In this document: positions 1-22,640 of the stretch, piece by piece
Position numbering within the stretch: the stretch's first letter is position 1
How the letters are laid out: every line of letters begins with the position of its first letter
Source: a virus
Reading direction: 5' to 3' (one strand)
DNA: 24,406 nt
IMG/VR virus record: IMGVR_UViG_3300010412_000077
Location: 1-24,406 of that record
The notes under the pieces: model-generated
Told to the model about the DNA's origin: nothing
The model's input: the letters and a program-made list of their open reading frames with translations, nothing else
Databases searched by the model: none
Made by a program: the position numbers and the translations under genes

Positions 1-3000
1 ACCGTTGCGGACGTATCTGCCGCCCCCCCCACCTCGGATGCGTGTAATATTCAGAGCGCACATCGTTTAACGGAGTAACCGACCTGTCAAATCTTTCGAG
101 CATGTCGATGACTTCTTGGTCAAAGATCACCCAGTTCCGCTCTCCGGAGGTTTCACCGATGTAAGTGCTTCCGGTGTATCCAGCCATATTCAGAGAGCGC
201 GATGCCGCTTCCGCCCCCCATGTATTGACGGGATTCATCTTGTGGCGCATTGGCGCAGAGACATCGGTAAGCATTTCTTTCAGGAATAGCGGCAAGTTCT
301 CCTGCCTGTACTCCACTGGCATGGTATCTGGCTCGTCAAAATATGCTTCCTGTACTGCCCTCAGATTCTGACCAATTCGCTTGAACATGCCTTCGAGCTG
401 CACGCGCAATTCATTGCCGCGCATATACACACCCTTGCCAGCGTGCATATTATTTTTTGCAGAATCTGTCTCCCAAGTCAGATTCCTGATGAGCATATCG
501 ATATAGCGTTCTTCGCCACGGGAACCTGACAGGGTGTCCCTGATCAGATGTTGTGGAATCTCATCCCTGATCGTTTCCAGCAAGGAGATCAGACGCTGCA
601 ATGCCTCATACCCGAATTGGTCTGAAGCCACCTCTTCTTCAAGATCAAGATAATGGGCGTCTGGCAGATTCAACTTGTAGATATATCCCGGGGTTCCGGA
701 AATATCCTTGTTAAGCTCCCGCCTGTGAATCTGCGTGCCAAGACTGATTTCGTTGGCTATTGAGTCATAACTTTCATTACCTATGGCTTCCAGTACTGTG
801 TCGCTATTCAGTGCTTGCCATGTAGTAAGAGAATTGACACTGCCATTATCGCCAACAGATTCGTTGATAATCCGCTCAGCTATCGGCACAAGATAGTCCC
901 TGACTTTGGTCAGAAACTTGACGTAATCATTTGTCTCATTCATCGCACGCAAGAATGCTTGCGTGATATCTTCCCTTACTCCTTCATAGATATCCTTGTT
1001 GCGCCATTTTGCTGGCACAGCATATTCAAACATATCTGACCCTTTCTTCTCCCAGTCCTTGCCGAAACTTCTGGTCAGATATAAATCAGTCCTGCTGTTC
1101 ATCAGCCATTCTTCGACTGTGCCAAGCTCCGCTGTTTTTGTGACGAGGTCTCTGATCTTTGGACTAAACAATGCCACTATCAGCGCCTTGTTTCTTGAGC
1201 CTTGCCTTTCAATCTCTCCATATATACTGGAATTAAAAGAAAAACTGCTCCACTTAACAGAACTTTTGTCCATGCCGATACGGCCATGAACTTGCTGGAA
1301 GGCGGACTGCATTATCTTGTAGAACTGCGTCCCGAGCCACCAGCTATCCCCATCCAATTCCAGAATGTTCTTGCGAATAAACATATGCGTCCATAGATCA
1401 TCTTGGCTGAGTCTTTCTGCCATGGACGATGTTTCCGGATCAATCTCTTGATCGATATTCTCTTCTAGTTTTTGTCTGCTATGTTCGATATCTGTTTCGG
1501 CACCATCCATCGCTGGCTCAGACTCAAACAGCAACGCTTCAATTGTTCTTACCAGCTCATTCGCACTGATGGTTCCGGCCCGGAAGTTTGCCGCAGCTCT
1601 TTGCAAGGACAGCTTCCGCTGATCCATTGCCATGATTGTCACAGTAACGAACTCTTCCAGTTTGTTTCTTGATTCAAGCTCCTTCTTGGTTGATTTGCGA
1701 GCTTCGGTATCAGACATGAGGGACGACTCATTAAGCTGCCAAATGATCTCAAGATCAACGTCAGTTGGATTTTCTATTCCAACTGCTTTGGCGGTATCCT
1801 CACGTGTCTCCCTAGAAAAATCCCTGAAAAGCAACTTTCTGATTACATCTCTGTCACGCAACCAATCTGGATATATCTCATCTATCCAGTCCGAAATCTT
1901 TAGCGATACAACAGATGGATCGCCTTTTGCTTTGTTTCTTAATTCAACTCCAAGTTTTCTGGAATGCCCTATTGCTGTGACAAAAATCGCTAATTCTTCA
2001 CTTCCAGCTCTAATAGTCTGTGCAGACTCTCCGGAACGCTGGCGCATCCGTGCGTACCAGTCTGCAATGCCAACCCGACTGGTTGAGTAGATGCCCCAAC
2101 CCTTAATGATCGCGCCCTCGCCTGTGCCGACAGCACTTAGCAAGAACTTGTTATGATTAGATGGAGACCCATGCCATGCCATCATCTCTGGGATATCCAG
2201 AGGACTGGCGCGTTTGCCCAGATATTCTCCAGTCTGCGGGTTATAGATATTGCCCGTAGCTTGTCCAATCAGACTGGTGGCATTCTGCGCGGCTTTCCTT
2301 GCCGCAGGCAGGTTTCCAGCCAGCAACGCATTGGTCATATCCAGAAGGTTCTGCTGGATTGGATTGGTGCGCGGATGCTCCGCGTAGGCTTTAGTGATTG
2401 CATCAACAACATGCGGTATGGCCTTCTTGTCACCCTCCATGTGTTGCAGCAATTCATTAACGTACCCGGGATAGTCCGGATTAGTTGAAGACAAGACCCT
2501 GCGAACCTTCTCCATGATGTATCCGGGGTCACCGATCATGTCGTAACCACTGAACTGGATAGCCGCCTTGGACGCTTCTCGCGTTGCATCTCCTGCTGCT
2601 TCAATTAGCCCACGGAATGCGCCACCTCTTCGACCCCACTCTTGATTATGGACAAGCTTTTCTGGCACAGCCCACTGGGCGTTATATGCCTGATCCTCGG
2701 CTACAGTATCGACAACCTCGCTTTGCATATTTGAATCATTAGCAACCTCTACCAACTGCTGTAGCCGTGGCTTGATGGCTTCTATCTTTTGCGGTTCACG
2801 TTGCGCCTGCTGAATAATGGACGACACCGCTTCCTTGATAGGATTGTTCTGGACCCTCTCAGGAGGGTTGCCCTGAATACTCTCCATAAGGTCTTGTCGA
2901 GAATGTATTCCAATACGGGCAAACAGGTCCGGGCGTTCATCAAACCCATCGATCAGCTCAGTACGAAATCTGTCCATGCGGGCTTCGTACTTGTCATCAG

Positions 3001-4057
3001 TCTGCCCCATGGCCTTCCACAGCTCGTATTCATCATTCTGCTGTTTGACACCATGTATGGTCGATCCAACTGTCTTGATGAAGGTGCTTTCGACGTCACT
3101 CAGTCCATCAAAAAGCAGATTCTGCTTTCTTGTGGGATCAAACTTTGGATCAAGGGCCTGCACTGCAAGTCTGTCAGCAAGAAAGTTATTGAACATTTTT
3201 TCTTGCTGTCTGTGATAGATCGGTTCTACAACATGATTCTTGACTGCCCCGGCGCCAGCACCTGCAACGGAACCCACCATTCCGCCAATAATGGCGCTAT
3301 CCACACCAACATCTATTAATTCCCTGATGCTGAATCCGCGATCAGGATGTATCAATGCCCTGTCGTATGCATACTGTGCAATACCGTTAGTCAGCTCCTG
3401 AAAGCTTTCCATACTGGCAGCTGTTCCAGCCTGCTTTGCAACAGACCCGACGCCTTCTCTTATGTATTTGACAGGCAGATATTCGCTGCCAGCCTCAAGG
3501 ACAGACATAACCGTAGCATCACGGTGGGCAATCATAGGCGATGCGCCTTCGGCCAGCCGCTCCCCAAAAATACTACCGTAGACTTGAGCGCCCATGGCAG
3601 CGATGCCGATTCCGGGCGAGATCACTGATCCTGCAATGGTCGGGGCCATCTGCATCAATGCATTGGCGGCATTGGACAGCAACCAAGAAAACCCTCTTTC
3701 CCCTAAAGGTTTTGCCCTGATCTGGTTCTCGTACTTTTCAAACAGGGGCATTAATTCATATTTAACGCGGTTTAGTTTATCTTGCTTCTCCTTATCAGAG
3801 ATTTCCTTTAATTGATCTTCAGTGACGTATTCGCTGTACTGTCGTGACGTATCAGAAAAGTTAGCCAGTGATTCCTGAATACCAATCCACGATTTTCCGA
3901 ACTGTGCAGGTTGTGTCAGCCATGCGTTACGAAGACTTGGCAAGATGTTTTTGACATCTTTTTCAAGATCGTAATCCGATGGCATTGCATCTGGCATGTC
4001 CCATGCGATCTCTTCCGGCTGATCGCTGTACCCGGGAATGCCATATTTATTAGTCAT
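1..4057 (-). CDS. Giant ejection/polyvalent protein with ADP-ribosyltransferase-like motifs (partial, C-terminus off window)
   Basis: An open frame of 1,352 codons runs from ATG at 4057 to the left edge without a stop. It was read by hand, with the frame checked at residues 100, 628, 1009, 1125 and 1308. Residues 1-120 are charged. Residues 122-165 and 246-272 are Gly/Ala-rich hydrophobic stretches that could insert in a membrane. Residues 280-620 are mainly helical and charged. At 628-668 lies WHGSP...GTGEG...GWGIYSTS...ADWY, the N-terminal signature of ART-PolyVal ADP-ribosyltransferase domains, with candidate NAD-binding H629 and Y657. Further parts of that signature occur only much later: YIYKLNLPDAHYLD near 1125-1138 and GYTGSTYIGETSGERNWVIFD ending near residue 1313. 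It follows the coiled-coil gene after one nucleotide, with a weak ribosome site, and sits in the P22 gp16 position. I infer an injected virion protein with a host-modifying domain. The fold and position are fairly sure; the activity is unproven. Confidence 0.85.
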   Translation of the reverse strand, partial: MTNKYGIPGYSDQPEEIAWDMPDAMPSDYDLEKDVKNILPSLRNAWLTQPAQFGKSWIGIQESLANFSDTSRQYSEYVTEDQLKEISDKEKQDKLNRVKYELMPLFEKYENQIRAKPLGERGFSWLLSNAANALMQMAPTIAGSVISPGIGIAAMGAQVYGSIFGERLAEGASPMIAHRDATVMSVLEAGSEYLPVKYIREGVGSVAKQAGTAASMESFQELTNGIAQYAYDRALIHPDRGFSIRELIDVGVDSAIIGGMVGSVAGAGAGAVKNHVVEPIYHRQQEKMFNNFLADRLAVQALDPKFDPTRKQNLLFDGLSDVESTFIKTVGSTIHGVKQQNDEYELWKAMGQTDDKYEARMDRFRTELIDGFDERPDLFARIGIHSRQDLMESIQGNPPERVQNNPIKEAVSSIIQQAQREPQKIEAIKPRLQQLVEVANDSNMQSEVVDTVAEDQAYNAQWAVPEKLVHNQEWGRRGGAFRGLIEAAGDATREASKAAIQFSGYDMIGDPGYIMEKVRRVLSSTNPDYPGYVNELLQHMEGDKKAIPHVVDAITKAYAEHPRTNPIQQNLLDMTNALLAGNLPAARKAAQNATSLIGQATGNIYNPQTGEYLGKRASPLDIPEMMAWHGSPSNHNKFLLSAVGTGEGAIIKGWGIYSTSRVGIADWYARMRQRSGESAQTIRAGSEELAIFVTAIGHSRKLGVELRNKAKGDPSVVSLKISDWIDEIYPDWLRDRDVIRKLLFRDFSRETREDTAKAVGIENPTDVDLEIIWQLNESSLMSDTEARKSTKKELESRNKLEEFVTVTIMAMDQRKLSLQRAAANFRAGTISANELVRTIEALLFESEPAMDGAETDIEHSRQKLEENIDQEIDPETSSMAERLSQDDLWTHMFIRKNILELDGDSWWLGTQFYKIMQSAFQQVHGRIGMDKSSVKWSSFSFNSSIYGEIERQGSRNKALIVALFSPKIRDLVTKTAELGTVEEWLMNSRTDLYLTRSFGKDWEKKGSDMFEYAVPAKWRNKDIYEGVREDITQAFLRAMNETNDYVKFLTKVRDYLVPIAERIINESVGDNGSVNSLTTWQALNSDTVLEAIGNESYDSIANEISLGTQIHRRELNKDISGTPGYIYKLNLPDAHYLDLEEEVASDQFGYEALQRLISLLETIRDEIPQHLIRDTLSGSRGEERYIDMLIRNLTWETDSAKNNMHAGKGVYMRGNELRVQLEGMFKRIGQNLRAVQEAYFDEPDTMPVEYRQENLPLFLKEMLTDVSAPMRHKMNPVNTWGAEAASRSLNMAGYTGSTYIGETSGERNWVIFDQEVIDMLERFDRSVTPLNDVRSEYYTHPRWGGRQIRPQR

Positions 4058-5321: not shown

Positions 5322-7118
5322 CTATCCGCCCATTCCCCAGCCATACATTCTGGTGAGGTTATCCCAGCTGTTGGCATTGATAGCCCCACCAGCCATGTAA
5401 GCACTGGCAGAGGTTGCGCCTGCGCCGCCTATGGCATTGGCTCCAGCCTGACCGTAACCGCTTTGGGTTGCCGCAGAAGTATTGGAACTGGACCCGCCGT
5501 ATCCGGCAATCATGCCCAATCTGTCAAAGATTTTGCCGTATTCATTGGAAGCATAGTCCTGTCCCCACGAGGTAATGGCCTTGAGCGCACCACCAGATAA
5601 GGCGCCACCTCTGGCCGCTGCGCCCCGTTCGATCATCCTCTGGCCCTCGTCCATCCTGAACTGATAGCCCGGATCGGTCTTCCAGTCATACATTGGAGCT
5701 TCAGACAGAATGTTCGGGATGGTGTCCACCGTATAGGGATTGCCCGGGGTACCAGTTCCGCCAGCATTGCCTTGACCGGGAGCCGTGTTCCCGAGAGTGG
5801 TGTTCACCGACCCCTGATTCCCGAAGAAGGTATTCATTACCCCGCCAAAAGGCGGTGGGTTCTGGCTCGGAACCATGCCATTAGCGTATCCGTCGGCTGG
5901 CTGAGTTGGGCCTCCGGGCTGATATGTCGGATTTAGTCCAGTAAATGCAGTATTCCATAGTCCGGAACCAAAGGTTCCCCCTGTAATATGCGGCGTCACA
6001 CCCGGGACAGACTTGCCCTTGGCCATCGCCATGGCGGCACCCTTTGGACCGGGGATCACTGTACCGCTGGTTCCGGGCGGAAGAATTGAAGGCTGTTCAT
6101 AACGGACAACCCTGCCATCATCGAATTCAACAGTTTCTGGTTCGATCTCTGCAACAGAATGCAGCCCGGGAAGCCTTGGGAAATGACCGCCTTCGGCATT
6201 GGTTGAACCACCAAACACACTTTTTAGCCAGCCAATCAACCCGCCGCTTCCGGTAGATGCTGGGGTAGCAGGCGCTGCAAATAATGAGTTGTAATTTGCG
6301 AAATTCCCTAGACCTTCGCCTATACCCGGAGTTGGTGCGCCAAAGTTCTGCAGCCCAGAATTGATCCCGCCGAAATTATTGACCCCGCCGATACCAATAT
6401 TAGGCATTATGCTTCCGGCCCCAGCGAATCCGCCAAGTCCGCCATCTACCCCAATAGATGGAGTTGGCGCTCCCGGTAATGTATTTCCGGAAAGATTTCC
6501 CATTGATCCAGAAGACCCTTGAGTATTGAGCAAACCACCAAGATTTGCCCCAACATCCCAAGGCATGCCAATCGCAGTGCCTATAACACCGCCTATCTCA
6601 TCTCCCCACTGGAATCCAGAGTCTGACCAACTGTTTGCAGGGTCATAGGGTGTTCCTGCAAATGGATCAAACATGGATGATCCTTGCGGCGTGTTGCCAG
6701 CCATTGGGGTAATGCCGGGACGATACGAAGTATCTACAGTACCTATTGCGCCACCTGCGCCGGGACCGGCACCACCGGGATTGTATCCTTCGTTTCCACT
6801 TCTAGCGCCACCTCCGGGCGGACCATTTCCACCAGAAGGCTGATCTGGCTGATAAGCAAAGTTACTGGCAAAGCGGGGAAGCCCCATCATATCCATCATG
6901 CCAGCCAAGGCTGTATATCCAGCTTGCTGATAGGGCGCAGTTGCTGATCTGCCCATAGCTCTGGACTCATCCAGATAGGCCAATTGCATTGCCGTAGATT
7001 CAGCTATGGCGTTGTTGGCGGCGCCTACAGCATCATCAGCCTGATCTGCTGCCCGCTGGTTACCCAAATAACCAAATACATAAGGGGCTGCTTCTCTAAT
7101 ATATTGCCATGCGCTCAT
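5322..7118 (-). CDS. Gly-rich ejection-type virion protein (P22 gp7 position)
   Basis: A 598-aa protein. ATG 7118 was chosen because it makes a 4-nt ATGA overlap with the stop of the previous gene; an upstream TTG at 7229 would add 37 unsupported residues. Residues 1-85 are Ala-rich and helical (MSAWQYIREAAPYVFGYLGN, many small residues). Residues 90-330 are Gly/Pro/Asn-rich low complexity. A short ordered patch near PRLPGLHSVAEIEPETVEFD is followed by more Gly/Pro-rich sequence. Residues 481-534 are the conserved part (DPGYQF, EGQ, AAARGGALSG, GQDYASNEYG), a block I know from many phage proteins annotated as DNA-transfer or tail-assembly proteins. A Gly/Ala/Ser tail ends the protein. It probably belongs to the set expelled with the DNA. 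Family membership is well supported; the precise role is inferred. Confidence 0.88.
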   Translation of the reverse strand: MSAWQYIREAAPYVFGYLGNQRAADQADDAVGAANNAIAESTAMQLAYLDESRAMGRSATAPYQQAGYTALAGMMDMMGLPRFASNFAYQPDQPSGGNGPPGGGARSGNEGYNPGGAGPGAGGAIGTVDTSYRPGITPMAGNTPQGSSMFDPFAGTPYDPANSWSDSGFQWGDEIGGVIGTAIGMPWDVGANLGGLLNTQGSSGSMGNLSGNTLPGAPTPSIGVDGGLGGFAGAGSIMPNIGIGGVNNFGGINSGLQNFGAPTPGIGEGLGNFANYNSLFAAPATPASTGSGGLIGWLKSVFGGSTNAEGGHFPRLPGLHSVAEIEPETVEFDDGRVVRYEQPSILPPGTSGTVIPGPKGAAMAMAKGKSVPGVTPHITGGTFGSGLWNTAFTGLNPTYQPGGPTQPADGYANGMVPSQNPPPFGGVMNTFFGNQGSVNTTLGNTAPGQGNAGGTGTPGNPYTVDTIPNILSEAPMYDWKTDPGYQFRMDEGQRMIERGAAARGGALSGGALKAITSWGQDYASNEYGKIFDRLGMIAGYGGSSSNTSAATQSGYGQAGANAIGGAGATSASAYMAGGAINANSWDNLTRMYGWGMGG

Positions 7119-7453
7119 GTGATCACCGTTCCTGATGCGTGAACAGTAAGGGCCGAAGCTGAGCTTGCGACCATCTGTATGGTATCCCCTGCCGTGAGAA
7201 CCAGACCTTCCAGCTCTGCGGCAAGCCATGTCTCATTCGGGGTAATATTCTGCGCGTCAATTGCCATGTTGGAATTGCCCGCAGACCCTCCGTTCTCTAC
7301 GAGATAAACTGTCAAAGTTCTTGTGGAGGTATCGGTGTTGCAAACCACCAGCCTCCTTAGAACAACCGTCGTCTTGGATGCCACCGTGTAATAGGTAGTC
7401 GTTGAGTTGGCTACCTGTACGGGGTCAAGCAGTCTTGTGATAGCTACCGTCAT
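7115..7453 (-). CDS. Small beta-rich phage virion protein
   Basis: A 112-aa protein from ATG 7453, which overlaps the preceding stop in ATGA; its own stop overlaps the next start in the same way. The whole sequence alternates beta-strand patterns (YYTVASKTTVVLRRLVVCNTDTS, TLTVYLV, GLVLTAGDTIQMVASSASAL), and the layout of 'NTDTSTRTLTVYLVENGG' followed by 'LTAGDTIQ' is common to small structural proteins of many tailed phages. It is probably a single beta-sandwich subunit of the tail or neck exterior. No enzymatic residues are evident. The coupling to the fibre-like gene upstream suggests the two act together. Confidence 0.8.
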   Translation of the reverse strand: MTVAITRLLDPVQVANSTTTYYTVASKTTVVLRRLVVCNTDTSTRTLTVYLVENGGSAGNSNMAIDAQNITPNETWLAAELEGLVLTAGDTIQMVASSASALTVHASGTVIT

Positions 7454-8160
7454 TTCTCGTACAACGCTACTGAACCGAGCGAATCGCTCTGGTAGTGGAT
7501 GTCAAATTCCAGAAGGCGAGCATCGGCGCCATAGGTATCTGCAGCATCACCGCCGATTCTGGATAGCTTCCAGACAACGAGGCACGAGATATCGTATGCG
7601 CTCATGTCTATCGTCCCAAAACTTGATATCAAGACCTTGTTAGCAGTATCTGTATCAGGCGTTCCGGCTACGGCAGATGTCGTGCTAAGCGTGGTTCCAT
7701 AAGCCATGGTCGCAGTATCGCCGTTGTTGACGATCTCGTAATCCAGTTGCCAGTACACATTTCCTGATGCAGAGGTTGTTTTCTGCCAATGCACATGGGG
7801 AGATATGTCTGTGCCTTGCTTCCATGCATGAGGCATCTGGGCGATTCCCGCCAAGGTTTCTGTTCCGGCTGCGGCAAATAACCACAGACCCGTTGTGGAC
7901 TCCAGATCAGGATCAGTCACAGCCCCGGGCGGATTGATACCCTGAGAGGGAAAACGCAGGTCATCCCATCTGCTATACAGGCGCTTGTGGTTGTCTGCTG
8001 ACAAGGCTGAATCCGGACTGAGATTTGCCAGATCGCGCAAAGCGATCTCGTCTGCCGACTCAATATACAGGGCAAGCTCTTGCATGAAACGCGACCAGTC
8101 ATGCTGGTTCTCAGGCATGGCCTGTAGTCGCGGATTGGTGAGGAATCTAGGGTTCGCCAT
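7450..8160 (-). CDS. Tail/head fibre-like protein with 'PHVHW' beta domain
   Basis: A 236-aa protein. ATG 8160 is preferred, with GAGG just upstream; a TTG at 8172 would add four residues. The gene starts inside the 3' end of the gp10-like gene (14-nt overlap). Residues 1-65 are helical (NQHDWSRFMQELALYIESAD). The remainder is a beta domain with WDDLRFP, a GLWLF segment, then MPHAWKQGTDISPHVHWQ and NVYWQLDYEI. The 'PH.WK.GTDI.PHVHW' block is a recognisable motif of phage structural proteins often found beside fibre genes. I infer a tail-tip or fibre-associated virion protein. It sits where P22 has its needle gene 26 but is not a long helical needle. Confidence 0.82.
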   Translation of the reverse strand: MANPRFLTNPRLQAMPENQHDWSRFMQELALYIESADEIALRDLANLSPDSALSADNHKRLYSRWDDLRFPSQGINPPGAVTDPDLESTTGLWLFAAAGTETLAGIAQMPHAWKQGTDISPHVHWQKTTSASGNVYWQLDYEIVNNGDTATMAYGTTLSTTSAVAGTPDTDTANKVLISSFGTIDMSAYDISCLVVWKLSRIGGDAADTYGADARLLEFDIHYQSDSLGSVALYEK

Positions 8161-9571
8161 ACTGCCTCGCAATCATGCCCTTGATAACGACCTTGATAGG
8201 TCCGTATATCTTCAGCCGGAAGGCCCAGATACGACCCTCCCCGAGCTTTCTCCACACGGCACGAAGGGTGTATTCGCCTATCTTGCCGATGGACTTCTTG
8301 ATCTCATTGGACCACGTATGACCGCCGTCCTTTGACCATGACAGGTAGGCATCGGTATCAGTGCTGTCAGTCAGGCCAACGCCCTCTTCCAGATCAATCT
8401 GTACCGACTTGAGCCTTATCCTCCGCTCCTCGTCAGAGATGTTCCCTATCTGACGCACCCGGGGAATCACACCCCCATTCATGGTATATACAGAGTTGCT
8501 CAGCTGATAAATCAGGCCATTGCTCATGTCGCCAAGCAGGTGCTTGCCGCATGCGAAGGCATGGCAATTATAACGCTCCCTGTTCGGGAACACATTAGAA
8601 ATAATATGCGCCCTCTCATGCCATATCTGGGTGGCGGCATCATAGGCCCAGACAGCCTTGGCAGTCGGGAAGTTCAGGACATAGAACTCGTGTCCCTCAA
8701 GCTGATAGGTATAGGCCCATGCATCAGAGACCGTGCTGTATTGCTGAATCTGGTAAGCCATCTCTGGCGAAGAAATAATCTTGGGCGCGTAGCCCTGCCC
8801 TGCTTGTGCCACTAGACACTGACCTCGGTTGTTTCTGGTGAGCCAGACCACCGTATTGTCGAACAATTGAGGGGAGAAAGTGGCTACGCACCCATGATGG
8901 GTAAATCCGCCTTGGAATCTCTGAAAGGTATTGTTGGCGTCTCCGGAGTTGTACCAGACCTCGCTGGTATCCTCGCCAAACAGCCAGACCTGCCGCTTGT
9001 CGCATAGCACTGTCATGAGTCTGTCAGGACCGCCTTCTGCCGTAGCAAAGTCCAGTCCGTCTATAGTGCCACCGGCATACAGATTGGTGATCCAGAACCG
9101 TCCTGAACCTTTTTCTGCATAGATAAAGTACCCGTCAATGAAGTCCACCCGATCCGTTGAGGTGAAGTCAGCATCGAGAATCTGGGTGAATGTCCCGCCC
9201 GTGCTGCTGTATATCCAGCCTTGTGAGCCATCCACCACCATGATCTCATTACCAACGCCCGGGCCGTTGTGAGCCATGGAGACCCGTCCTGACGAGGTAT
9301 TCAGGGTGCCTCTGCTGGTTACTGTCCCTGTGGAAGATATCTCCAAGAACTTGCTGCCAACTACGGCATATACAACATTCTGCCCGTAGGCAATAATTCC
9401 CCTGACCTCACCGCCATGGGCGGAACAGTCTGCAAACTGGGTGCATCCCGGGGTGCCAACTAAGGCGCCTTCAGCATGACTCGCCGGATCAAAGTACAGA
9501 TTTATACAGCGTTCAGGAGAGACCGAGGACGATCTTCCTGTATACGATCCGCCGATCATGGGGATTTTCAT
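8147..9571 (-). CDS. P22 gp10-like tail hub / packaged-DNA stabilisation protein
   Basis: A 474-aa protein from ATG 9571, overlapping the gp4-like stop by 4 nt (ATGA), which suggests translational coupling. The N-terminus MKIPMIGGSYTGRSS with ERCINLYFDP is the typical opening of P22 gp10-like proteins. The bulk is a beta-propeller-like series (VVYAVVGSKFLEI, MVVDGSQGWIY, VDFIDGYFIYAEKGSGRFWI, VWLFGEDTSEVWYN, DNTVVWLTRNNRG), and the C-terminus (LRAVWRKLGEGRIWAFRLKI) is the usual closing strand block. In P22, gp10 hexamers bind below gp4 and close the tail tube after packaging. The order gp4 then gp10 is conserved here. Length is as expected for the family, and there is no sign of damage. Confidence 0.94.
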   Translation of the reverse strand: MKIPMIGGSYTGRSSSVSPERCINLYFDPASHAEGALVGTPGCTQFADCSAHGGEVRGIIAYGQNVVYAVVGSKFLEISSTGTVTSRGTLNTSSGRVSMAHNGPGVGNEIMVVDGSQGWIYSSTGGTFTQILDADFTSTDRVDFIDGYFIYAEKGSGRFWITNLYAGGTIDGLDFATAEGGPDRLMTVLCDKRQVWLFGEDTSEVWYNSGDANNTFQRFQGGFTHHGCVATFSPQLFDNTVVWLTRNNRGQCLVAQAGQGYAPKIISSPEMAYQIQQYSTVSDAWAYTYQLEGHEFYVLNFPTAKAVWAYDAATQIWHERAHIISNVFPNRERYNCHAFACGKHLLGDMSNGLIYQLSNSVYTMNGGVIPRVRQIGNISDEERRIRLKSVQIDLEEGVGLTDSTDTDAYLSWSKDGGHTWSNEIKKSIGKIGEYTLRAVWRKLGEGRIWAFRLKIYGPIKVVIKGMIARQYGEP

Positions 9572-10509
9572 CGACCTCTGACCTCTGCTTCAATGCGGAA
9601 CGATGCATTCTCCACATCGTAATCCAGCATGTCATTGAGAAGGGCCTTTGCCTTGGCTTCTGTCGCCAGCCTATCCTGAAGAGGTAACCCATATTCCCAC
9701 GAAAGCTCTGCCGCCAGCCCCCAGACGATGGTATTTGCCCACTCTGGAGGAAACTCCGGATTATCTGCACCCGTGTCAAAATCATCCGGAAGGTTTTCCG
9801 TAATCAGTACCAGTTTGTCATCGTAAAGGTTGCTGACTGGCCACACGTACAGCGTTCCGTTAGTCAGGGTAGGTTGATACCAGATTTGGTTGATTCGCCC
9901 CGTAGCGGCCTTTCTGGAAAGCCTCCTGTACTCTTTTTCTCCGATCAGGTCTATTTCTGTATCGGTAGCCAAAGTATCCCGTCTGTGGGCATAAATAATT
10001 TTCTGGGGTCTTGGAGATTTGGTTGTGTAGGCATAGACATTACGACCAGCTGTAGCAGCTGATGCCACCCCGGTAGTCAATGTGATCTGTGTAGCGGAAT
10101 CTACCGATGAGATGGTATCCCAGTGAAGAGATAGGTCATCTAGTTTGATTCCAATATTATCAGCAGCAGTCATACCTGTCGTAGACAAAACGGTAAGCGT
10201 CGTTCCGCTTGCTGCAATATCTAGCGCAACCGCAGTCTCCACATAAGACGCCGTAAAATGATCGCCGCTTGGGCCAAGAGAATAGTTTTGCGAGGTGCCA
10301 TCCAGAAATAGCGTGCAAGTCTGACGTAGCCAAATATCTATACCCTGTCCAACCCACCCCTTGATCATTAGATTCAAGGCACGGGAAGCATCCTGCGTAT
10401 CAGCGCCAGACGCCGGTTCCCCGGCATCGAACTCACCGATCTTGCGCAATGCAGCATCGATGATTTCATTTCTGGTAACGGTGAAGTCTTTTGATCCTGA
10501 TGTAGCCAT
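9568..10509 (-). CDS. P22 gp4-like head-to-tail adaptor (packaged-DNA stabilisation) protein
   Basis: A 313-aa protein. ATG 10509 overlaps the upstream TAA by one base (TAATG) and is preferred over a TTG at 10527. Residues 10-70 carry the gp4 hallmark: RNEIIDAALRKIGEFDAGEP, ADTQDASRALNLMIKGW and GIDIWLRQT. Residues about 165-313 (PRPQKIIYA, the EKEYRRLSRKAATGR region, WYQPTLTNGTLYVWP, ENLPDDFD, PPEWANTIVWGLAAELSWEYGLP) continue the fold, ending in helices with a RGR tail. Residues 88-163 are an extra beta-rich insertion that P22 gp4 is not known to have but that occurs in many gp4 relatives. gp4 attaches to the portal after packaging and prepares the neck for gp10. Confidence 0.94.
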   Translation of the reverse strand: MATSGSKDFTVTRNEIIDAALRKIGEFDAGEPASGADTQDASRALNLMIKGWVGQGIDIWLRQTCTLFLDGTSQNYSLGPSGDHFTASYVETAVALDIAASGTTLTVLSTTGMTAADNIGIKLDDLSLHWDTISSVDSATQITLTTGVASAATAGRNVYAYTTKSPRPQKIIYAHRRDTLATDTEIDLIGEKEYRRLSRKAATGRINQIWYQPTLTNGTLYVWPVSNLYDDKLVLITENLPDDFDTGADNPEFPPEWANTIVWGLAAELSWEYGLPLQDRLATEAKAKALLNDMLDYDVENASFRIEAEVRGR

Positions 10510-11921
10510 TAGTGTGTCGCCAGCCAAAGGTTGAAAGAGTTTCTACGACGCAGAATTTCTCCTGCGTTGAAAGAACCATAAACTGCGGTTCCCTGATTTA
10601 CTGCTATCTCAGCGCCTGTTAGCTCAACGTCAACATCTACAACAGTCGATGTGCCTGACGCTGTTACTGTACCAGATTGCGCAATAATTGACGCGCCTGT
10701 TATCGCAATTTTCGTACCGCCAGAAAACGCAACAGAGCCTTGTTGCGCTGCAATAACTGCGCCATATAGAAGACTTACGGCATCTCCGTTTGTCTGGATC
10801 GTAAGCTCGCCATGATGCGCAGCAGCTTCTGCTCCTGTAACTGAAGCAGTCTGAACATCTGCAGCAGCAACTGCTCCTGACTGAGCTGACGAGGATGCTC
10901 CTGTAAGAGCAAACCTCGCTTTTCCTGTAACAGTAGTTGACCCAGCTTGAGCGGCTGATTCTGCTCCATCAATATAGATAACGACTGTTGATCCGAGCAT
11001 TTCTGTGGCGCCAGAATTGATCTGCGCACCAGTAATCTCGAATGCCGTATCTACAACGGTTGTATTCTTTCCGGTAAATGCGCCATATAGCGAGGCTAGA
11101 CCTACCGGACCAAGGTCCGAGAAAGCTGTTCTTTGTATTCCTTTTCCGGTGAAAACAGTATAGACACCAGATAAGCCAATAGGGCCAAGATCAGAAAAGG
11201 TGTCTTTACCAGTACCTGCTGTTACACCAACCGTAACAGAAGCCGCTTCTCCAGCTGTTTCTGCACCAGTTACTGCTGCTTGGGTTCCAATCGTAAGAGT
11301 AACTGTGCCTGCGTCGGAAGCTATCTGCGCCCCTGTAATCGCAAACTCAATGTTTGCCCCAGCACCATGGTCGAAAGACGAATACGGCCCTACAGGAAGG
11401 CCCAATGGGGACAAATCGCTATATGCTGGCTTGGCTGCTTCGCCTATTCCAGCAGCAGTTCCATATTCCGCTGCAGCTTCCGCGCCAGTTAGCGTTGCAG
11501 AAACACCAAAAGAAATTGTCACGTTCCCGGCTTGTGCGGCAGTCGCTACGCCGGTTGGTTGCGGGATACTGGTTCCTCCAGCAACAACAGCATCTGTTTG
11601 AACATTTACTTGATCGCCAGTAATGGCGAATATGGCATTACCGACAACAGTGAAAGCGCCAGAATCAGCGCCAATCTCTGCGCCGGTTACAGAAGCAATT
11701 GTTGGCGTAACCTTGTTCCAGTCTGGATATGGCGCCAACGGTAACGCGACAGGCGAAAGATCGGAGTAATTCGCCTTGATGACTTGGAAGTCAACTGCAA
11801 GAGTACCGGCAGCAGCGGTGGCTTCTGCGCCAGTTAAAGATGCCGTTACGCCTACATGCCTAAGATCAGCATATAATCCAGAAGGCAGACCAGCAGGCGA
11901 CAGGTCTGAATAATTTGCCAC
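10509..11921 (-). CDS. Repeat protein with TGA/GxV and YSDLSP motifs; putative virion exterior protein
   Basis: A 470-aa protein from GTG 11921 (no ATG fits; GGGGG lies about 4 nt upstream), 22 nt after the preceding stop. It is almost wholly repetitive. About twelve copies of a beta-type unit, 'TGAxxxxxxGxxxV' (for example LTGAEATAAAGTLAV, ITGAQIASDAGTVTL, VTGAEAAAHHGELTI), lie near residues 30, 79, 122, 146, 196, 218, 297, 318, 340, 362, 408 and 435. Five copies of 'YSDLSPxGLPxxxY' begin at 4, 52, 167, 242 and 267, the last two reading FSDLGP. Ala, Gly, Thr and Val dominate and there is no Cys. The C-terminus (RRRNSFNLWLATH) is different and basic/aromatic. Similar TGA-type repeats are common in phage proteins of unknown function. 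I infer an extended beta-solenoid or fibrous element just upstream of the neck genes. Confidence 0.82.
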   Translation of the reverse strand: MANYSDLSPAGLPSGLYADLRHVGVTASLTGAEATAAAGTLAVDFQVIKANYSDLSPVALPLAPYPDWNKVTPTIASVTGAEIGADSGAFTVVGNAIFAITGDQVNVQTDAVVAGGTSIPQPTGVATAAQAGNVTISFGVSATLTGAEAAAEYGTAAGIGEAAKPAYSDLSPLGLPVGPYSSFDHGAGANIEFAITGAQIASDAGTVTLTIGTQAAVTGAETAGEAASVTVGVTAGTGKDTFSDLGPIGLSGVYTVFTGKGIQRTAFSDLGPVGLASLYGAFTGKNTTVVDTAFEITGAQINSGATEMLGSTVVIYIDGAESAAQAGSTTVTGKARFALTGASSSAQSGAVAAADVQTASVTGAEAAAHHGELTIQTNGDAVSLLYGAVIAAQQGSVAFSGGTKIAITGASIIAQSGTVTASGTSTVVDVDVELTGAEIAVNQGTAVYGSFNAGEILRRRNSFNLWLATH

Positions 11922-13573: not shown

Positions 13574-14650
13574 TTATGGTGGACTCCAGTCTGATGGTTT
13601 GTACATATAGACGCTTTCGCTAATAGCGTTAACGCCTATGAAAACGTCATACTCTGCGGCATAGGCAAAGCGCCCGTTGATGCCTTCTGGTGTTCCCGGT
13701 GTCGGGGTCACGCCTCCGGGTGATCGCGTAGACCACGAATCAGTGGTGGGATTGTAAATGTACAGCGTTGAGCCGCCCTCCCACGCCACGTATTCATCAC
13801 GCACGGAATCGTAATCGTATCCGGGAGATTTACTCGTTGGCGCACCGGATGTCGAGAGACGCAGCGTTGTTGTCCAGTTTCCAATCGTATAGCCCTGATG
13901 TGTATTCCATTCGAAACCGTTACCCTTCCATATCATTCGATTGCGTAAAGTATCTAGCAGCATCGAGCCGTATCCCTTCTCGCCCCTTGATCCATAATCG
14001 GTCTTGGTGTCTGTTATTGGATCGTAACTATGCAGACTTGGCACCACTGTTCCGTGGCCCTCCGCTATATAGAAAACCTGATCTGTCGGATGCCATATCG
14101 CGCTGCCACTGTGATCGTCACCGGCAGAAGCATTTAGCGCCGTCCATGTATCTGTGGCCGGATTCCAGCCTTGGTAAGTTGTGAGTGGTGTTCCGCCTCG
14201 ACCAAGCCTGTATAGATTGCCGTTAAGAGGGCAATAACCAAGATGGTCATAAGTATGCTGGGCCTTTGGCGCACCGTCTGGATACCACCCGTTTACCTGT
14301 GTGGTTCTGGATAGCAAAGTGGGCGCATTCATGCGCCGCCATACGTTGTTAGCTAGACTGAACGCATACCACTCGTTTCCGTCGTAATCATCGTGACCAC
14401 CACCAGTAACATATAGGTCATGCGTATCAACAGAATAAACGCCGCCACACCAAGGCAGCATTATGCTTTCTATATTTGTGGGCCAAAGAGCGCCGCCAGT
14501 CGTCGGTGGGTTTGCCACATAATCCCACGCCACGGATTCAAGTGTATTCGTACCAATGGCGGTCCATTGGCCAGCAGTGGCGTTTTGGATGTGCGAAGGG
14601 TATCCAGCAACCGAAGGGACGGTAAATGCGTTGCTAGTTACTGTGGTCAT
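13574..14650 (-). CDS. Kelch-like beta-propeller protein
   Basis: A 358-aa protein from ATG 14650, 7 nt after the previous stop. It repeats a propeller-blade pattern: YSVDTHDLYVTGGGHDDYDG with NEWYAFSLANNVWRRM (residues 72-106), NLYRLGRGG...WNPATDTWTAL, QVFYIAEGHG...HSYDPITDTKTDYGS, RNRMIWKGNGFEW and EYVAWEGGSTLYIYNPTTDSW. The 'GGGHxDYxGN' and 'YNPTTDSW' elements are typical kelch/galactose-oxidase-type motifs. No copper-site residues of galactose oxidase can be assigned, and there is no signal peptide, as expected for a virion protein. It is coupled to the beta-helix gene downstream and the 742-aa gene upstream. I infer a carbohydrate- or surface-binding exterior subunit. Confidence 0.85.
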   Translation of the reverse strand: MTTVTSNAFTVPSVAGYPSHIQNATAGQWTAIGTNTLESVAWDYVANPPTTGGALWPTNIESIMLPWCGGVYSVDTHDLYVTGGGHDDYDGNEWYAFSLANNVWRRMNAPTLLSRTTQVNGWYPDGAPKAQHTYDHLGYCPLNGNLYRLGRGGTPLTTYQGWNPATDTWTALNASAGDDHSGSAIWHPTDQVFYIAEGHGTVVPSLHSYDPITDTKTDYGSRGEKGYGSMLLDTLRNRMIWKGNGFEWNTHQGYTIGNWTTTLRLSTSGAPTSKSPGYDYDSVRDEYVAWEGGSTLYIYNPTTDSWSTRSPGGVTPTPGTPEGINGRFAYAAEYDVFIGVNAISESVYMYKPSDWSPP

Positions 14651-14657
14651 GCCAACG

Positions 14658-16886
14658 CTACCCCCTCTTTACCGTTGACCAAACAGGGGCCGCGTCAAAG
14701 TCCGCAGTCGTGAATCCACCTATTATTCGGTTATATTCAGTGTCTGTTAGATACCCAGCGTCCCTCGCAGCACATACTGCGGCACGAAGGTTTGCACCAT
14801 AGTACGTCGCTATACTCGCAACATTCGCATCATTAAATGATCCACTAAGGCTGCAGCTTACAGGACCATATACATTTGACGCATACGTTGCCCAATCAGC
14901 AACATAAGTTCCAGTACTGCCGTCCCCGGGGTTTGTTCCGTGGCTGCCTTGCACACCATATTGCCAGCACCATGTCGTGTCAGAGCCGTAACTTGTTATC
15001 CCCCTGATCCACTGGGCCAGCCAAAGTAAAACCGCTGATGTGTTTGTCCCGCCAAGCTCCAATTCCGACAACCTGAAAGCCACGGCAAGATAGAAATACT
15101 GCATAAACGCAGCATTTTGGGCCGGATAATCGTAATCATCCAACCACCCGAAGATGTTATCCCAAGCACCAGTCACATACTGACTGTAAATATAATTAAT
15201 AGTGTCCGTGCAGCAAGTGTCAAAGTAGGTAGTCATAACGTGCGAATCTGGACTAATAAATGCCGCCCTCATCACATCGCGCAACCCCCACGCCTGAGAC
15301 CTCTTTTGAGCGCCTTCTGGCATCAGCGCCATGTCAGTTGCAAATCTGGCGTATTGCGCCCCAGTCTCGCCCTCTGCGGAGAGTATGCTGTTATTCCCCC
15401 AATACCAGATAGTTTCAAGGAAGTAATACTTTCCTGTAAGCAAATAAGCAAGATATCCATTGGCGGGTTTGTGGCTTGACTTACTTGTGGTGTCAGCCTT
15501 TGTCCCCGTCCCAACCTTCAAAACAGTTGGCGTCCAGCCCCTGTCATCTGCTGTTGGATATGTCTGTCTATTGACTGGATATCCGGTAGCGGAATCCTTG
15601 TAATGAATAGACCTGTGATTCGCTGCCTTGGCGTTACATATCACCGCCGCAACAGCATCAGAAGGGAAGCCATTACGAATGGCCGAAACATCCCACTCTG
15701 GGAGTGGCCCAATCTGCTTATGATAGCCAGTTGAACCGTAATCAACCCTATGATCGCCAAGCTCGTAAGGAGCAATAGTCTGCGTGTAACCGTCTATTAG
15801 AGTCTGGGGAACAGCGCCGGACTTATATTGCTCAATAGCCTTTGTGGAATACAAGTAGGATGTACTGTGTGCAACATGGACGCCCGGATCGCTTACCCAG
15901 TAAGTCTCCATGAATCTTGTGTTGTGGTAAATCGTTTGACTTGCACTGTAAACCTGTGTCCCTGCCAGAGTAAATGTGCAAGTCGTGGCAGATGTGGTGT
16001 TGGCATTTGCGGACAATGCCTCTGCGTTTTCTATAACAAAATCGACAGACAAGGCCCCATTGCTATAGTAGCGGCAATGGAAAAATCCATATACAGTCCC
16101 GCTAATCTGCCCTCCAACAATGCGCTCAATGCAATATGGGCCGTCCTGCCACGCAATTTTCCCCGGAGCCGCAGGTGTCCCAGCAAGCAGGGTCGCGGCA
16201 TTTATGCTTCCAGTGACCCCACCGGAGAGCGTGATCGTGGTCGTGCCGAGCGCCGAGATTAACGCAGCCTCGGTCAGCGAGGTAGCGGACGGGTCTGCTA
16301 TCAAGTGCAAGTCGTGAGAACCAGCAGACGAGAACACACCGGAGAATATCCCGAACTTCAGCGACCCATCGGACCACGTGGCCTTCTTTGTGACCTGAAT
16401 ATTTTCGTCGGTGACATTAAGAGTGTAACCGGCAGGCACATCACCCTTTGCGAAGGCATGGCCAAATGTGGCTGCACCAGTTCCGGTGACAGTAATGCTG
16501 GCTATGGCTGTGCCATAGTCCGCCTCCATCGTTATTCCAGTCTGCTGCGTGGTGCCGTAGGTCAAAATTCCAGTAACTGAATCATACGACGCATCACCAG
16601 TAAGTCCTACTGCCCGTGTAACTGAAACCAATCCCAGTGGATCGTCAAGATACTGCAGCATATTGTGCGAAGTACCAGCAGGAAGCGTTGCTGGTATTGT
16701 ATTCCACCCAACTCCAAACACTGTCGCGGTTCCGGCGCGCCCCAGCAATCCTGTCCCAGTTAATATCGCCGTGCCATGCGGCATTGTTACTGTTCCAGAT
16801 TGGGCATATATCGCAGCAGTCGGTATATCGAACTGAGCCGATGTCGGTGTGTAATCATGAAAGATTGTTACATCCGATCTGACCAT
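14658..16886 (-). CDS. Large putative polysaccharide-acting virion protein (RIFT-like plus alpha/alpha-toroid-like)
   Basis: A 742-aa protein from ATG 16886, 2 nt after the preceding stop. Residues 20-58 (AAIYAQSGTVTMPHGTAILTG) resemble the repeats of the 470-aa protein downstream. Residues 138-190 carry FGHAFAKGDVPAGYTLNV, KKATWSDGSLKFGIFSGVF and SAGSHDL. This 'F..GDVP.G......K.TW.DGS.K' pattern is one I associate with RIFT-barrel proteins related to rhamnogalacturonan lyases. Residues about 470-720 are helical and aromatic-rich (NGYLAYLLTGKYYFLETIWY, RSQAWGLRDVMRAAF, NAAFMQYFYLAVAFRLSEL), consistent with a toroid as in polysaccharide lyases. Catalytic residues cannot be assigned. I infer a depolymerase or glycan-binding spike; the enzyme class is uncertain. 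Confidence 0.82.
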   Translation of the reverse strand: MVRSDVTIFHDYTPTSAQFDIPTAAIYAQSGTVTMPHGTAILTGTGLLGRAGTATVFGVGWNTIPATLPAGTSHNMLQYLDDPLGLVSVTRAVGLTGDASYDSVTGILTYGTTQQTGITMEADYGTAIASITVTGTGAATFGHAFAKGDVPAGYTLNVTDENIQVTKKATWSDGSLKFGIFSGVFSSAGSHDLHLIADPSATSLTEAALISALGTTTITLSGGVTGSINAATLLAGTPAAPGKIAWQDGPYCIERIVGGQISGTVYGFFHCRYYSNGALSVDFVIENAEALSANANTTSATTCTFTLAGTQVYSASQTIYHNTRFMETYWVSDPGVHVAHSTSYLYSTKAIEQYKSGAVPQTLIDGYTQTIAPYELGDHRVDYGSTGYHKQIGPLPEWDVSAIRNGFPSDAVAAVICNAKAANHRSIHYKDSATGYPVNRQTYPTADDRGWTPTVLKVGTGTKADTTSKSSHKPANGYLAYLLTGKYYFLETIWYWGNNSILSAEGETGAQYARFATDMALMPEGAQKRSQAWGLRDVMRAAFISPDSHVMTTYFDTCCTDTINYIYSQYVTGAWDNIFGWLDDYDYPAQNAAFMQYFYLAVAFRLSELELGGTNTSAVLLWLAQWIRGITSYGSDTTWCWQYGVQGSHGTNPGDGSTGTYVADWATYASNVYGPVSCSLSGSFNDANVASIATYYGANLRAAVCAARDAGYLTDTEYNRIIGGFTTADFDAAPVWSTVKRG

Positions 16887-18413: not shown

Positions 18414-18424
18414 GATCACCTCCT
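18414..18424 (-). promoter_or_regulatory. Extended Shine-Dalgarno site
   Basis: The minus strand reads AGGAGGTGATC here, one base before the ATG at 18412. It is an 11-nt match to the complement of the bacterial 16S 3' end and overlaps the stop codon (TAG) of the lectin-like gene. The core AGGAGG lies about 6 nt from the start. It fixes the start of the 127-aa gene and predicts strong initiation. Confidence 0.75.
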
Positions 18425-19178
18425 ATCGCTGTACTGCGAAACGAAAGTAATCGACATGAACAACGTCTGCAGTTGTTGCATGGCCAGCCAGCATTCCAAT
18501 GAACGGAGCAAGAGCCAGATCATCCGGAACCTGCGCCTCTGTCAGCGAAGAAGCCACCTGAGTGCCATCAACGTATGCCCTGACGCAGCCATCACCAAGA
18601 GTGCTCGCTCCGTTGAATGACAGCGCCAGCGTGTGCCAAGTGTTGTCAGACAAGGTAGCAGCAGTCGTGTTGGTGTTGGTCTCGGTAACAGTACCGCCGT
18701 TGTTCTTGTCGTAGGTCAGTTGGCAAACCGCCGTATCCAGAAGACCGAAAGAAATATAATCAGTGGTAGTGGTGGTCCAGATGTCTTCTGGATTGGTGGT
18801 TGCGGTCAGATCAGACAGGCCAAACTGGAACGTCATGGCAGACACATCTTCAATCTTGACCCGAACTTCCATGAAGAACTTCTTGCCATTCAAATGGACA
18901 CACTTGGGCAGATAGACTGCCACGCCCTCGTTGTCCGCGTCAGAGTCGAGCAGCAACTGTCCGCCGATAAGACCGGCATTGGTCGCTGTACATCCGACAT
19001 CGATGATTGCAGCAGACCACCCAGCGGGGACGTTTGTTGCAACAGGACCAGTGAAGTCATCAAAGAACGACACCCATTCCTTCGACGGGAACATTCCCAT
19101 GCCGCGACGGTAGGGAAACGTCAAATCCTTGCCGTGTACGATACTCTCGGCAACCGAGAAAGCATTATTCTTGGACAT
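18423..19178 (-). CDS. LamG/concanavalin-like lectin-fold protein
   Basis: A 251-aa protein. ATG 19178 is preferred because GGAGGG sits 7 nt upstream; a TTG at 19193 would place that site inside the gene. After a short N-terminus (MSKNNAFSVAESIVHGKDLT), residues 36-250 show a jelly-roll lectin pattern: WVSFFDDFTGP, GQLLLDSDADNEGVAVYLP, GKKFFMEVRVKIEDVSAMTF, QFGLSDL, DNTWHTLALSFNG, GCVRAYVDGTQVAS and VVHVDYFRFAVQR. The 'D..WHTLALSF......V.AYVDG' element is the classical LamG/ConA core. It is the first gene after the coat hairpin. I infer a capsid-decorating or fibre protein that may bind glycans. Confidence 0.88.
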   Translation of the reverse strand: MSKNNAFSVAESIVHGKDLTFPYRRGMGMFPSKEWVSFFDDFTGPVATNVPAGWSAAIIDVGCTATNAGLIGGQLLLDSDADNEGVAVYLPKCVHLNGKKFFMEVRVKIEDVSAMTFQFGLSDLTATTNPEDIWTTTTTDYISFGLLDTAVCQLTYDKNNGGTVTETNTNTTAATLSDNTWHTLALSFNGASTLGDGCVRAYVDGTQVASSLTEAQVPDDLALAPFIGMLAGHATTADVVHVDYFRFAVQR

Positions 19179-19211
19179 TAATAAACCCTCCAACAGTCAT
19201 ATCAAAGTCGA

Positions 19212-19243: not shown

Positions 19244-20152
19244 TTAGGCGCCCGGAGAGCCGTACAGTCCACGCGGATCGGTCCAGCCAACACTAAAGCG
19301 CATGTATCCTTTCGCCTTGGCGTTGTCAGTATCGAAATCTGAGTCCTTGGTGAACTCCACAGCTTCACGATTGAACCACCGCAACCCGCTGGGTGCATTG
19401 GTCCTGACGAACCATGCATCCGCATCAGTGAAGTAGTGATTTACGTGAACCGTCGGAATCACACCACGAGAACGCAGTGCGTTGACAGCATTGTTTGCCG
19501 TGTCATTCTGAAGCGTTGACTTCAGGATTCGCTCGGCCTCAAAGACCAGCTGTGGCGGAACAAGCAAGGCAGTGGGTCGCAGGGAGATTTTCATTCCCTT
19601 GCTATTCGTCGCCTGCATGATTTGCACCGCGATATCTTCCAGAGAAGCCTCGGAAAGATCAGCTGCGGTAGACAGTTCATTGCTGAACGTGCCACCGTTT
19701 GCCATCGTGTGCGCCGTTGACAACAGTTCCAGCCCGTCTGCTCCGACGTAGCTGTTGCTGAATGCACGGTTGTACACGTTGGCGCCTACGTTCTCCCGGG
19801 TCTGTGCCATGGAGAATGCCAGAGCCGCTGCGCGGTTCATGGACACTTCCTTGTACAGATTGTCTGCCAGCTCTTCGCGGGTCACGATGTAACCCAGTGC
19901 ATACGCTACGTGCGTATAGCGGGCCACATTTCCCTGCGAGTTGCCGTCATAGACGACGGGAGAACCCTGCGCCTTGATCGGAGCCAGACCGAATGAGGTG
20001 TGTTCAACCTCTTCCTCGTAAGCTTTCGAGGAACCGACAACATCAAACAGCTTGTCGTACTCAGTCTCATGCTCGTCGTACTTCGCGCCGAACCACTTGT
20101 ATACCCCGGGCCACAGTGCTTTGGGGTGATTGCCAGTTGTAATGACTGCCAT
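19244..20152 (-). CDS. Major capsid (coat) protein, Mu gpT-like HK97-type
   Basis: A 302-aa protein from ATG 20152 with AAGGGGG about 8 nt upstream, 12 nt after the previous stop. Recognisable coat features include the N-terminal KALWPGVYKWFGAKYDEHET with YDKLFDVVGSSKAYEEEVE, the E-loop-like GLAPIKAQGSPVVYDGNSQG, the central helix VTREELADNLYKEVSMNRAA with ALAFSMAQTRE, and then the A-domain segment SLRPTALLVPPQLVFEAERI followed by IPTVHVNHYFTDADAWFV. It follows scaffold and head genes and precedes a hairpin, the usual signs of the most heavily expressed gene. It resembles the Mu-like major head subunit (gpT) family, which has the HK97 fold, rather than P22 coat. No protease gene is visible in the window, so maturation cleavage cannot be judged. 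Confidence 0.93.
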   Translation of the reverse strand: MAVITTGNHPKALWPGVYKWFGAKYDEHETEYDKLFDVVGSSKAYEEEVEHTSFGLAPIKAQGSPVVYDGNSQGNVARYTHVAYALGYIVTREELADNLYKEVSMNRAAALAFSMAQTRENVGANVYNRAFSNSYVGADGLELLSTAHTMANGGTFSNELSTAADLSEASLEDIAVQIMQATNSKGMKISLRPTALLVPPQLVFEAERILKSTLQNDTANNAVNALRSRGVIPTVHVNHYFTDADAWFVRTNAPSGLRWFNREAVEFTKDSDFDTDNAKAKGYMRFSVGWTDPRGLYGSPGA

Positions 20153-22396: not shown

Positions 22397-22640
22397 CTTT
22401 GCTCTCCGGTGTTTCCAGTAAACTCATCTCTCCTGTCTTCAGGAACTCTGCAATTGTGTCCAGTTCTGCTTCTGCTCCCATAAGATAGGCTCGTTGCTCT
22501 TGCGTTTTGACAGGCTCGCCCCACAGGTATAGGTCTCCACGATTATGGTAGGCAGTGTCAAGCCTACGCTCAATCATGGTCCTGACAAACCGAGTGATCG
22601 GGGATTCCAGCCACTCTTCCATTGCTCGTTTATCCGCCAT
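22329..22640 (-). CDS. Small helical protein between portal and GroES-like gene
   Basis: A 103-aa protein from ATG 22640, overlapping the portal stop by 11 nt, and overlapping the GroES-like start by 68 nt. It is helical and charged (MADKRAMEEWLESPITRFVR, KTQEQRAYLMGAEAELDTIA), with a disordered acidic Gly/Glu tail (DNPEGGEGTGEAGYH) that is encoded in the overlapped part. Similar small proteins follow portals in many phages; the function is unknown. Coding is supported by operon spacing and by the coherent N-terminal helices. Confidence 0.75.
   Translation of the reverse strand: MADKRAMEEWLESPITRFVRTMIERRLDTAYHNRGDLYLWGEPVKTQEQRAYLMGAEAELDTIAEFLKTGEMSLLETPESKDEQESVRDNPEGGEGTGEAGYH

What the first reader, a model, noticed from the sequence alone, without database searches (positions are those of the whole stretch)
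113..2176. ADP-ribosyltransferase motifs split by a ~450-residue insertion in a giant ejection protein
Seen: residues 628-668 carry WHGSP...GTGEG...GWGIYSTS, and the matching later elements (YIYKLNLPDAHYLD, then GETSGERNWVIFD) appear only near 1125 and 1313. In the ART-PolyVal domains I know, the first gap is a few tens of residues. Here roughly 450 residues (about bases 690-2050), charged and helical, separate them. Inference: a second domain is inserted in the ART fold, or the later motifs belong to another copy. Either would be an unusual injected effector.
Basis: partly seen in the sequence, partly recalled or inferred. Interest (0 to 1): 0.72.

Follow-up and report, generated by a model that had tools for sequence, protein, structure and literature searches.

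The report
Phage ejection-protein ADP-ribosyltransferase with long insert
A phage protein probably injected with the DNA contains one ADP-ribosyltransferase domain that is interrupted, at a place where its relatives already carry a shorter helical loop, by an unusually long stretch of about 450 mostly helical residues, making it an extreme variant of a known kind of phage effector.

Summary
The open frame from 4057 to the contig edge (1,352 aa, no stop) carries ADP-ribosyltransferase (ART) motifs at residues 624-673 and 1281-1318. Profiles built from 120 IMG/VR relatives hit both pieces separately (E 7e-20 and 4e-10), in family order, with only one copy of each. The middle motif (1124-1138) is in the right place, but its score does not exceed chance. 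AlphaFold2 with 75 relatives puts confident ART strands in both halves. Single solved ART chains (cyanophage A4 ejectosome protein, tankyrase, diphtheria toxin catalytic domain) align across both. So this is one ART split by an insert, not two copies.

In 106 relatives the first gap is 23-220 residues (median 100), and in an ordinary relative it is predicted helical. Here it is about 465, the longest of all sampled. It is therefore an extreme expansion of a known variable loop. The insert has no detectable relatives in any collection searched and is 76% helical in a low-confidence model, so whether it is a separate functional domain is open. Best reading: an ART-PolyVal-type effector domain in a podovirus ejection protein.

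The parts
2..4057 (-). Large protein P0001, 1,352 aa, cut by the contig edge (no stop codon), follows the ejection genes
   Evidence: codon usage comparable along the frame
3302..3844 (-). Residues 72-252, similar to the N-terminal part of the giant 'DNA methylase/DarB-like' protein in the syntenic position of Vibrio phage VvAW1
   Evidence: tblastn 27.9% identity, E 2e-4
2039..2188 (-). ART first half, residues 624-673: WHGSP (H629), GTGEGA, GWGIY (Y657), Y668
   Evidence: profile hit E 6.7e-20; family conservation; strands 625-631 and 656-659 in the model
698..2035 (-). Long insert, residues 675-1120, mostly helical, no detectable relatives
   Evidence: length compared with relatives; model; negative searches
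638..688 (-). ART middle strand, residues 1124-1140, GYIYKLNLPDAHYLDLE
   Evidence: position, alignment and predicted strand; profile score not above shuffles
104..217 (-). ART last part, residues 1281-1318: AASRSLNMAGYTGSTYIGETSGERNWVIFD
   Evidence: profile hit E 4.1e-10; specificity; strands 1296-1300 and 1307-1311
5322..7229 (-). DNA ejection protein of the same module
   Evidence: phrog_598 'DNA ejection', E 1.2e-16
7450..8172 (-). Probable small DNA-transfer (gp7-like) protein, by position only
   Evidence: synteny with Phage DSL-LC05 and VvAW1; no profile hit
8147..9571 (-). P22 gp10-like head-closure / DNA stabilization protein
   Evidence: phrog_578, E 5.3e-115; 44% identical to Rhodoferax phage P26218

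Best explanation
The protein is a large ejection protein of a podovirus-like phage. It carries a single ADP-ribosyltransferase domain of the polyvalent-protein (ART-PolyVal, PARP/diphtheria-like) type. The domain starts at residue 624 and ends near 1330. Between the helix after the second strand (Y657 to Y668) and the third strand (1125) lies a segment of about 450 residues, predicted mostly helical. It is an extreme expansion of a loop that in relatives is 23-220 residues long and, in the one modelled, helical. Likely action (inferred): the protein is packaged in the head, leaves with the DNA, and its ART moves ADP-ribose from NAD onto host molecules early in infection, as T4 Alt does. The insert would sit at the edge of the fold and could help select targets, regulate access to the NAD site, or help pack or unfold the protein for passage.
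For: Both halves match family profiles in the right order and once each. All residues invariant in 75 aligned relatives are kept: G644, G646, E647, G648, G653, W654, G655, Y657, Y668, G1293, G1296; H629 (72 of 75) and N1308 (the majority residue) are kept too. AlphaFold2 gives pLDDT about 80-96 over the core strands of both halves. Single ART chains align from model residue about 25 to 731: 9k3a_B Z 11.0 (184 residues, rmsd 4.9), tankyrase Z about 9 (about 120 residues), 1dtp Z 8.3 (121 residues, rmsd 3.0), MbcT Z 7.8. A normal relative (L054, pLDDT 80.8) folds the same way and has four helices at the insertion point. The ejection setting rests on phrog_598 next door and synteny with VvAW1. 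An ART-fold domain occurs in a solved phage pre-ejectosome chain; the matching stretch of Anabaena phage A-4L ORF27L, taken here as the same phage, carries YHGT and GTYFS.
Against: The model was given relatives that span both halves, so their packing is homology-guided rather than independent evidence; a run with unpaired halves failed at the alignment step. pTM is only 0.48 and most of the insert is below pLDDT 50. The Pfam ART-PolyVal model does not reach its cut-off (14.9 against 31.2 bits). Position 650, Gln in 73 of 75 relatives, is Ile here, and position 1139, Trp in 66 of 75, is Leu. Packaging, injection and enzyme activity are untested.
Confidence: 0.83

Rival explanations
1. The insert is a separate domain with its own function (target recognition, autoinhibition or a second effector activity) placed inside the ART fold.
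For: Its length is more than twice that of any sampled first gap; two helical islands reach moderate confidence (819-838 and 1019-1069); its G+C is lower than its flanks (44.5% against 50-55%).
Against: No sequence relative, no profile hit and only weak helical matches of short stretches; an ordinary relative has a shorter helical segment at the same place, so simple growth of the loop explains it.
Confidence: 0.3
2. The two parts belong to two ART copies, each missing its other half.
For: Polyvalent proteins can hold several ARTs, up to 12 (PMC5512222), and 4 proteins in this sample have two clear first motifs. The gene is cut by the contig edge.
Against: Only one first motif and one last motif are found, in order; there is no DNA repeat in the gene; both parts fill one fold in the model.
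Confidence: 0.05
3. The ART is degenerate and serves only as a structural part of the ejectosome.
For: Two near-invariant family positions differ (Ile650 for Gln, Leu1139 for Trp) and the common YLD aspartate is Gly1301.
Against: H629, Y657 and all invariant glycines are kept; relatives L025 and L119 also have YIGD in place of YLDG, and here E1302 takes that acidic place.
Confidence: 0.15
4. The long gap is an assembly chimera or sequencing error.
For: Single metagenomic contig without a second copy.
Against: The frame is open throughout, with codon usage comparable to that of the flanks in the coding frame.
Confidence: 0.04

Closest known systems
ART-PolyVal family (PF18760; H-Y-D ARTs of polyvalent proteins, Iyer et al. 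2017, PMC5512222)
   Same: Motif order, conserved H and Y, position in large phage proteins delivered with DNA; 90 of 99 sampled relatives match PF18760 at E <= 0.01
   Different: First gap about 465 residues against 23-220 in sampled relatives; itself below the Pfam cut-off
Cyanophage A4 pre-ejectosome protein (PDB 9k3a chain B; taken here as Anabaena phage A-4L ORF27L)
   Same: Ejection protein of a podovirus with an ART fold; Z 11.0 across both halves; has YHGT and GTYFS
   Different: Does not match the sequence profiles built here; short loop between the motifs
Giant DarB-like/DNA methylase protein of Vibrio phage VvAW1
   Same: Same gene position after P22-like ejection genes; residues 72-252 are similar
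   Different: No ART motif found in the stretch held
Phage T4 Alt
   Same: Model for an ART packaged in the head and injected (PMC5512222)
   Different: Belongs to the R-S-E clade, not the H-Y clade

Membership tests
ART-PolyVal / Tox-ART-HYD2 type | Histidine on strand 1 | tested here: met
   H629, aligned with H in 72 of 75 relatives; strand 625-631
ART-PolyVal / Tox-ART-HYD2 type | Tyrosine on strand 2 | tested here: met
   Y657, invariant; strand 656-659
ART-PolyVal / Tox-ART-HYD2 type | Aspartate on strand 5 | tested here: inconclusive
   D1313 is kept, E1302 stands near the usual YLD aspartate, which is G1301; which one is meant could not be settled
ART-PolyVal / Tox-ART-HYD2 type | Both halves form one ART fold | tested here: met
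   Single ART chains align across both halves; the model was homology-guided
ART-PolyVal / Tox-ART-HYD2 type | Pfam PF18760 curated score | tested here: not met
   First half alone 14.9 bits against 31.2; an ordinary relative, L054, also falls short with 19.3, so the score does not separate members in this clade
ART-PolyVal / Tox-ART-HYD2 type | NAD-dependent ADP-ribosyl transfer | not testable with these tools
   Needs an assay
Polyvalent protein | Two or more unrelated domains, at least one enzymatic, in one polypeptide | tested here: inconclusive
   One ART and an N-terminal part shared with VvAW1; no other Pfam domain; gene cut by the contig edge
Podovirus ejection protein | Encoded in the ejection gene block | tested here: met
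   Follows phrog_598 and a P22 gp10-like gene; syntenic with VvAW1
Podovirus ejection protein | Packaged in the virion and ejected | not testable with these tools
   Needs virion mass spectrometry

The most novel reading that the evidence does not exclude
The 450-residue insert is an undescribed helical domain nested in an injected ART that chooses its target or keeps it switched off until the protein has passed into the host.
Probability: 0.22. Interest if true: 0.5.

Novelty: new variant of a known kind. Interest (0 to 1): 0.33.

Why it matters
ARTs are described as the commonest protein-modifying domains of polyvalent phage proteins (PMC5512222), and a solved pre-ejectosome chain has the ART fold. 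The measured length range shows that one loop of this fold tolerates growth from tens to hundreds of residues. That loop is a natural place to look for what sets target choice, and profile searches that expect a compact domain will miss members like this one.

Tried and rejected
No close relatives of the protein or insert were found in viral contigs, genome contigs, phage records, plasmids (only weak ART-half matches) or PDB sequences, and none among the fetched loci for the insert. PF18760 against the whole window gave nothing, which is uninformative because the controls did not ring either. Eighty loci with related gp10 genes hold no ART motif and only one frame of 1,000 aa. A first gap figure of 482 (L069) came from a weak extra motif and was dropped; the cleaned maximum for first motif to last motif is 380 in 118 cases, against 608 here. 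A fold with unpaired halves was prepared but the alignment put the C fragments on the N half, so it was not run. Foldseek alone against PDB gave no significant hit for the large model; the one-domain relative gave 9k3a_B with E 5.5e-3, probability 1.00. The alternative of two ART copies was rejected.

Full report
What was checked. The frame from 4057 to 2 on the minus strand reads 1,352 residues without a stop and is cut by the contig edge. The window is an IMG/VR virus record of 24,406 bases.

Are the motifs real? A DNA pattern for GTGEGA...GWG[hydrophobic]Y returned 120 viral loci. From these, without the window sequence, I built three short profiles: first half (HG..GTGEGA..GWGLY), middle strand (G.LY.V...LLDWD) and last part (AAS..L..AGI.GIKYLDG...YNYVIFD). 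The first hits residues 624-673 with E 6.7e-20 and the last hits 1281-1318 with E 4.1e-10. The last profile is specific: of some 15,200 frames without the first motif only one other scores above 6 bits. The middle motif at 1124 is the best site in the protein, but a third of shuffles do as well, so it rests on its position and on predicted strands.

How unusual is the gap? In relatives, the distance from GWGxY to the middle strand has a median of 100 and a range of 23-220 (106 cases). From first to last motif the median is 157 and the largest value 380 (118 cases). Here the numbers are about 465 and 608. Other relatives are interrupted elsewhere: L009 and L211 have extra sequence between the YLD and NFV elements.

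One fold or two? AlphaFold2 on residues 600-1352 with 75 relatives gave mean pLDDT 60 and pTM 0.48. The ART strands 625-631, 656-659, 1125-1131, 1296-1300 and 1307-1311 lie in blocks of about 80-96. VIA-align matched single ART chains across both halves: cyanophage A4 pre-ejectosome chain B with Z 11.0, tankyrases about 9, diphtheria toxin catalytic domain 8.3, MbcT 7.8. These Z values are moderate, but the top rows are consistently ARTs. Because the alignment paired the halves, this is homology modelling in effect and not an independent test. A control model of an ordinary relative, L054 (pLDDT 80.8, pTM 0.74), shows the same strand order and four helices (87-152) between the tyrosine helix and the third strand; it gives the same matches. 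The insert therefore occupies a place where at least this normal member already has a helical segment.

What is the insert? It is 76% helix in a model that is mostly below pLDDT 50, 30% charged, and slightly lower in G+C than its flanks. Nothing related was found in any collection or library. That absence is weak evidence, because the contig searches need exact peptide matches and the insert was not folded alone.

Setting. Upstream genes encode an SU10-like portal and adaptor, a Mu gpT-like capsid protein, a P22 gp10-like head-closure protein and a phrog_598 DNA-ejection protein. The large protein comes last in this module, as does the giant protein of Vibrio phage VvAW1, to which residues 72-252 are similar (E 2e-4). 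An ejection role is therefore likely, and the published model for such ARTs is modification of host proteins after injection, as with T4 Alt (PMC5512222). An ART fold in a solved pre-ejectosome chain agrees with this; the A-4L sequence at the matching residues has the H and Y motifs. I equate A4 with Anabaena phage A-4L from the name and the matching residue range; the structure paper was not held.

Verdict. One ART of the polyvalent-protein type, split by a record-length helical insert, in a probable ejection protein. It is a new variant of a known kind. Shown: the motifs, their order, the lengths. Predicted: the single fold. Inferred: packaging, injection, catalysis and any role of the insert.

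Noticed in passing
window 2-4057: The 1,352-residue protein contains no cysteine at all.
   Followed up: no
L009 and L211: ART relatives with extra sequence between the YLD and NFV elements, so the fold is interrupted at more than one place in the family.
   Followed up: partly
L215:20116-25269 (Anabaena phage A-4L ORF27L): Annotated 'tail protein' carries YHGT and GTYFS in residues 1424-1450; PDB 9k3a chain B over 1418-1606 has an ART fold.
   Followed up: partly
window 22630-24405, 19244-20152, 9568-10527, 8147-9571: Mixed morphogenesis module: SU10-like portal and adaptor, Mu gpT-like capsid protein, P22 gp10-like head closure.
   Followed up: no
window 13574-14650, 14658-16886, 18423-19193: Possible receptor or sugar-binding genes: Kelch motif, rhamnogalacturonate-lyase-like N-terminal barrel, laminin G/polysaccharide-lyase-like domain.
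   Followed up: no
L124: Divergent relative with GTGEGAAYRGWGIYTT and no last motif in the stretch held.
   Followed up: no
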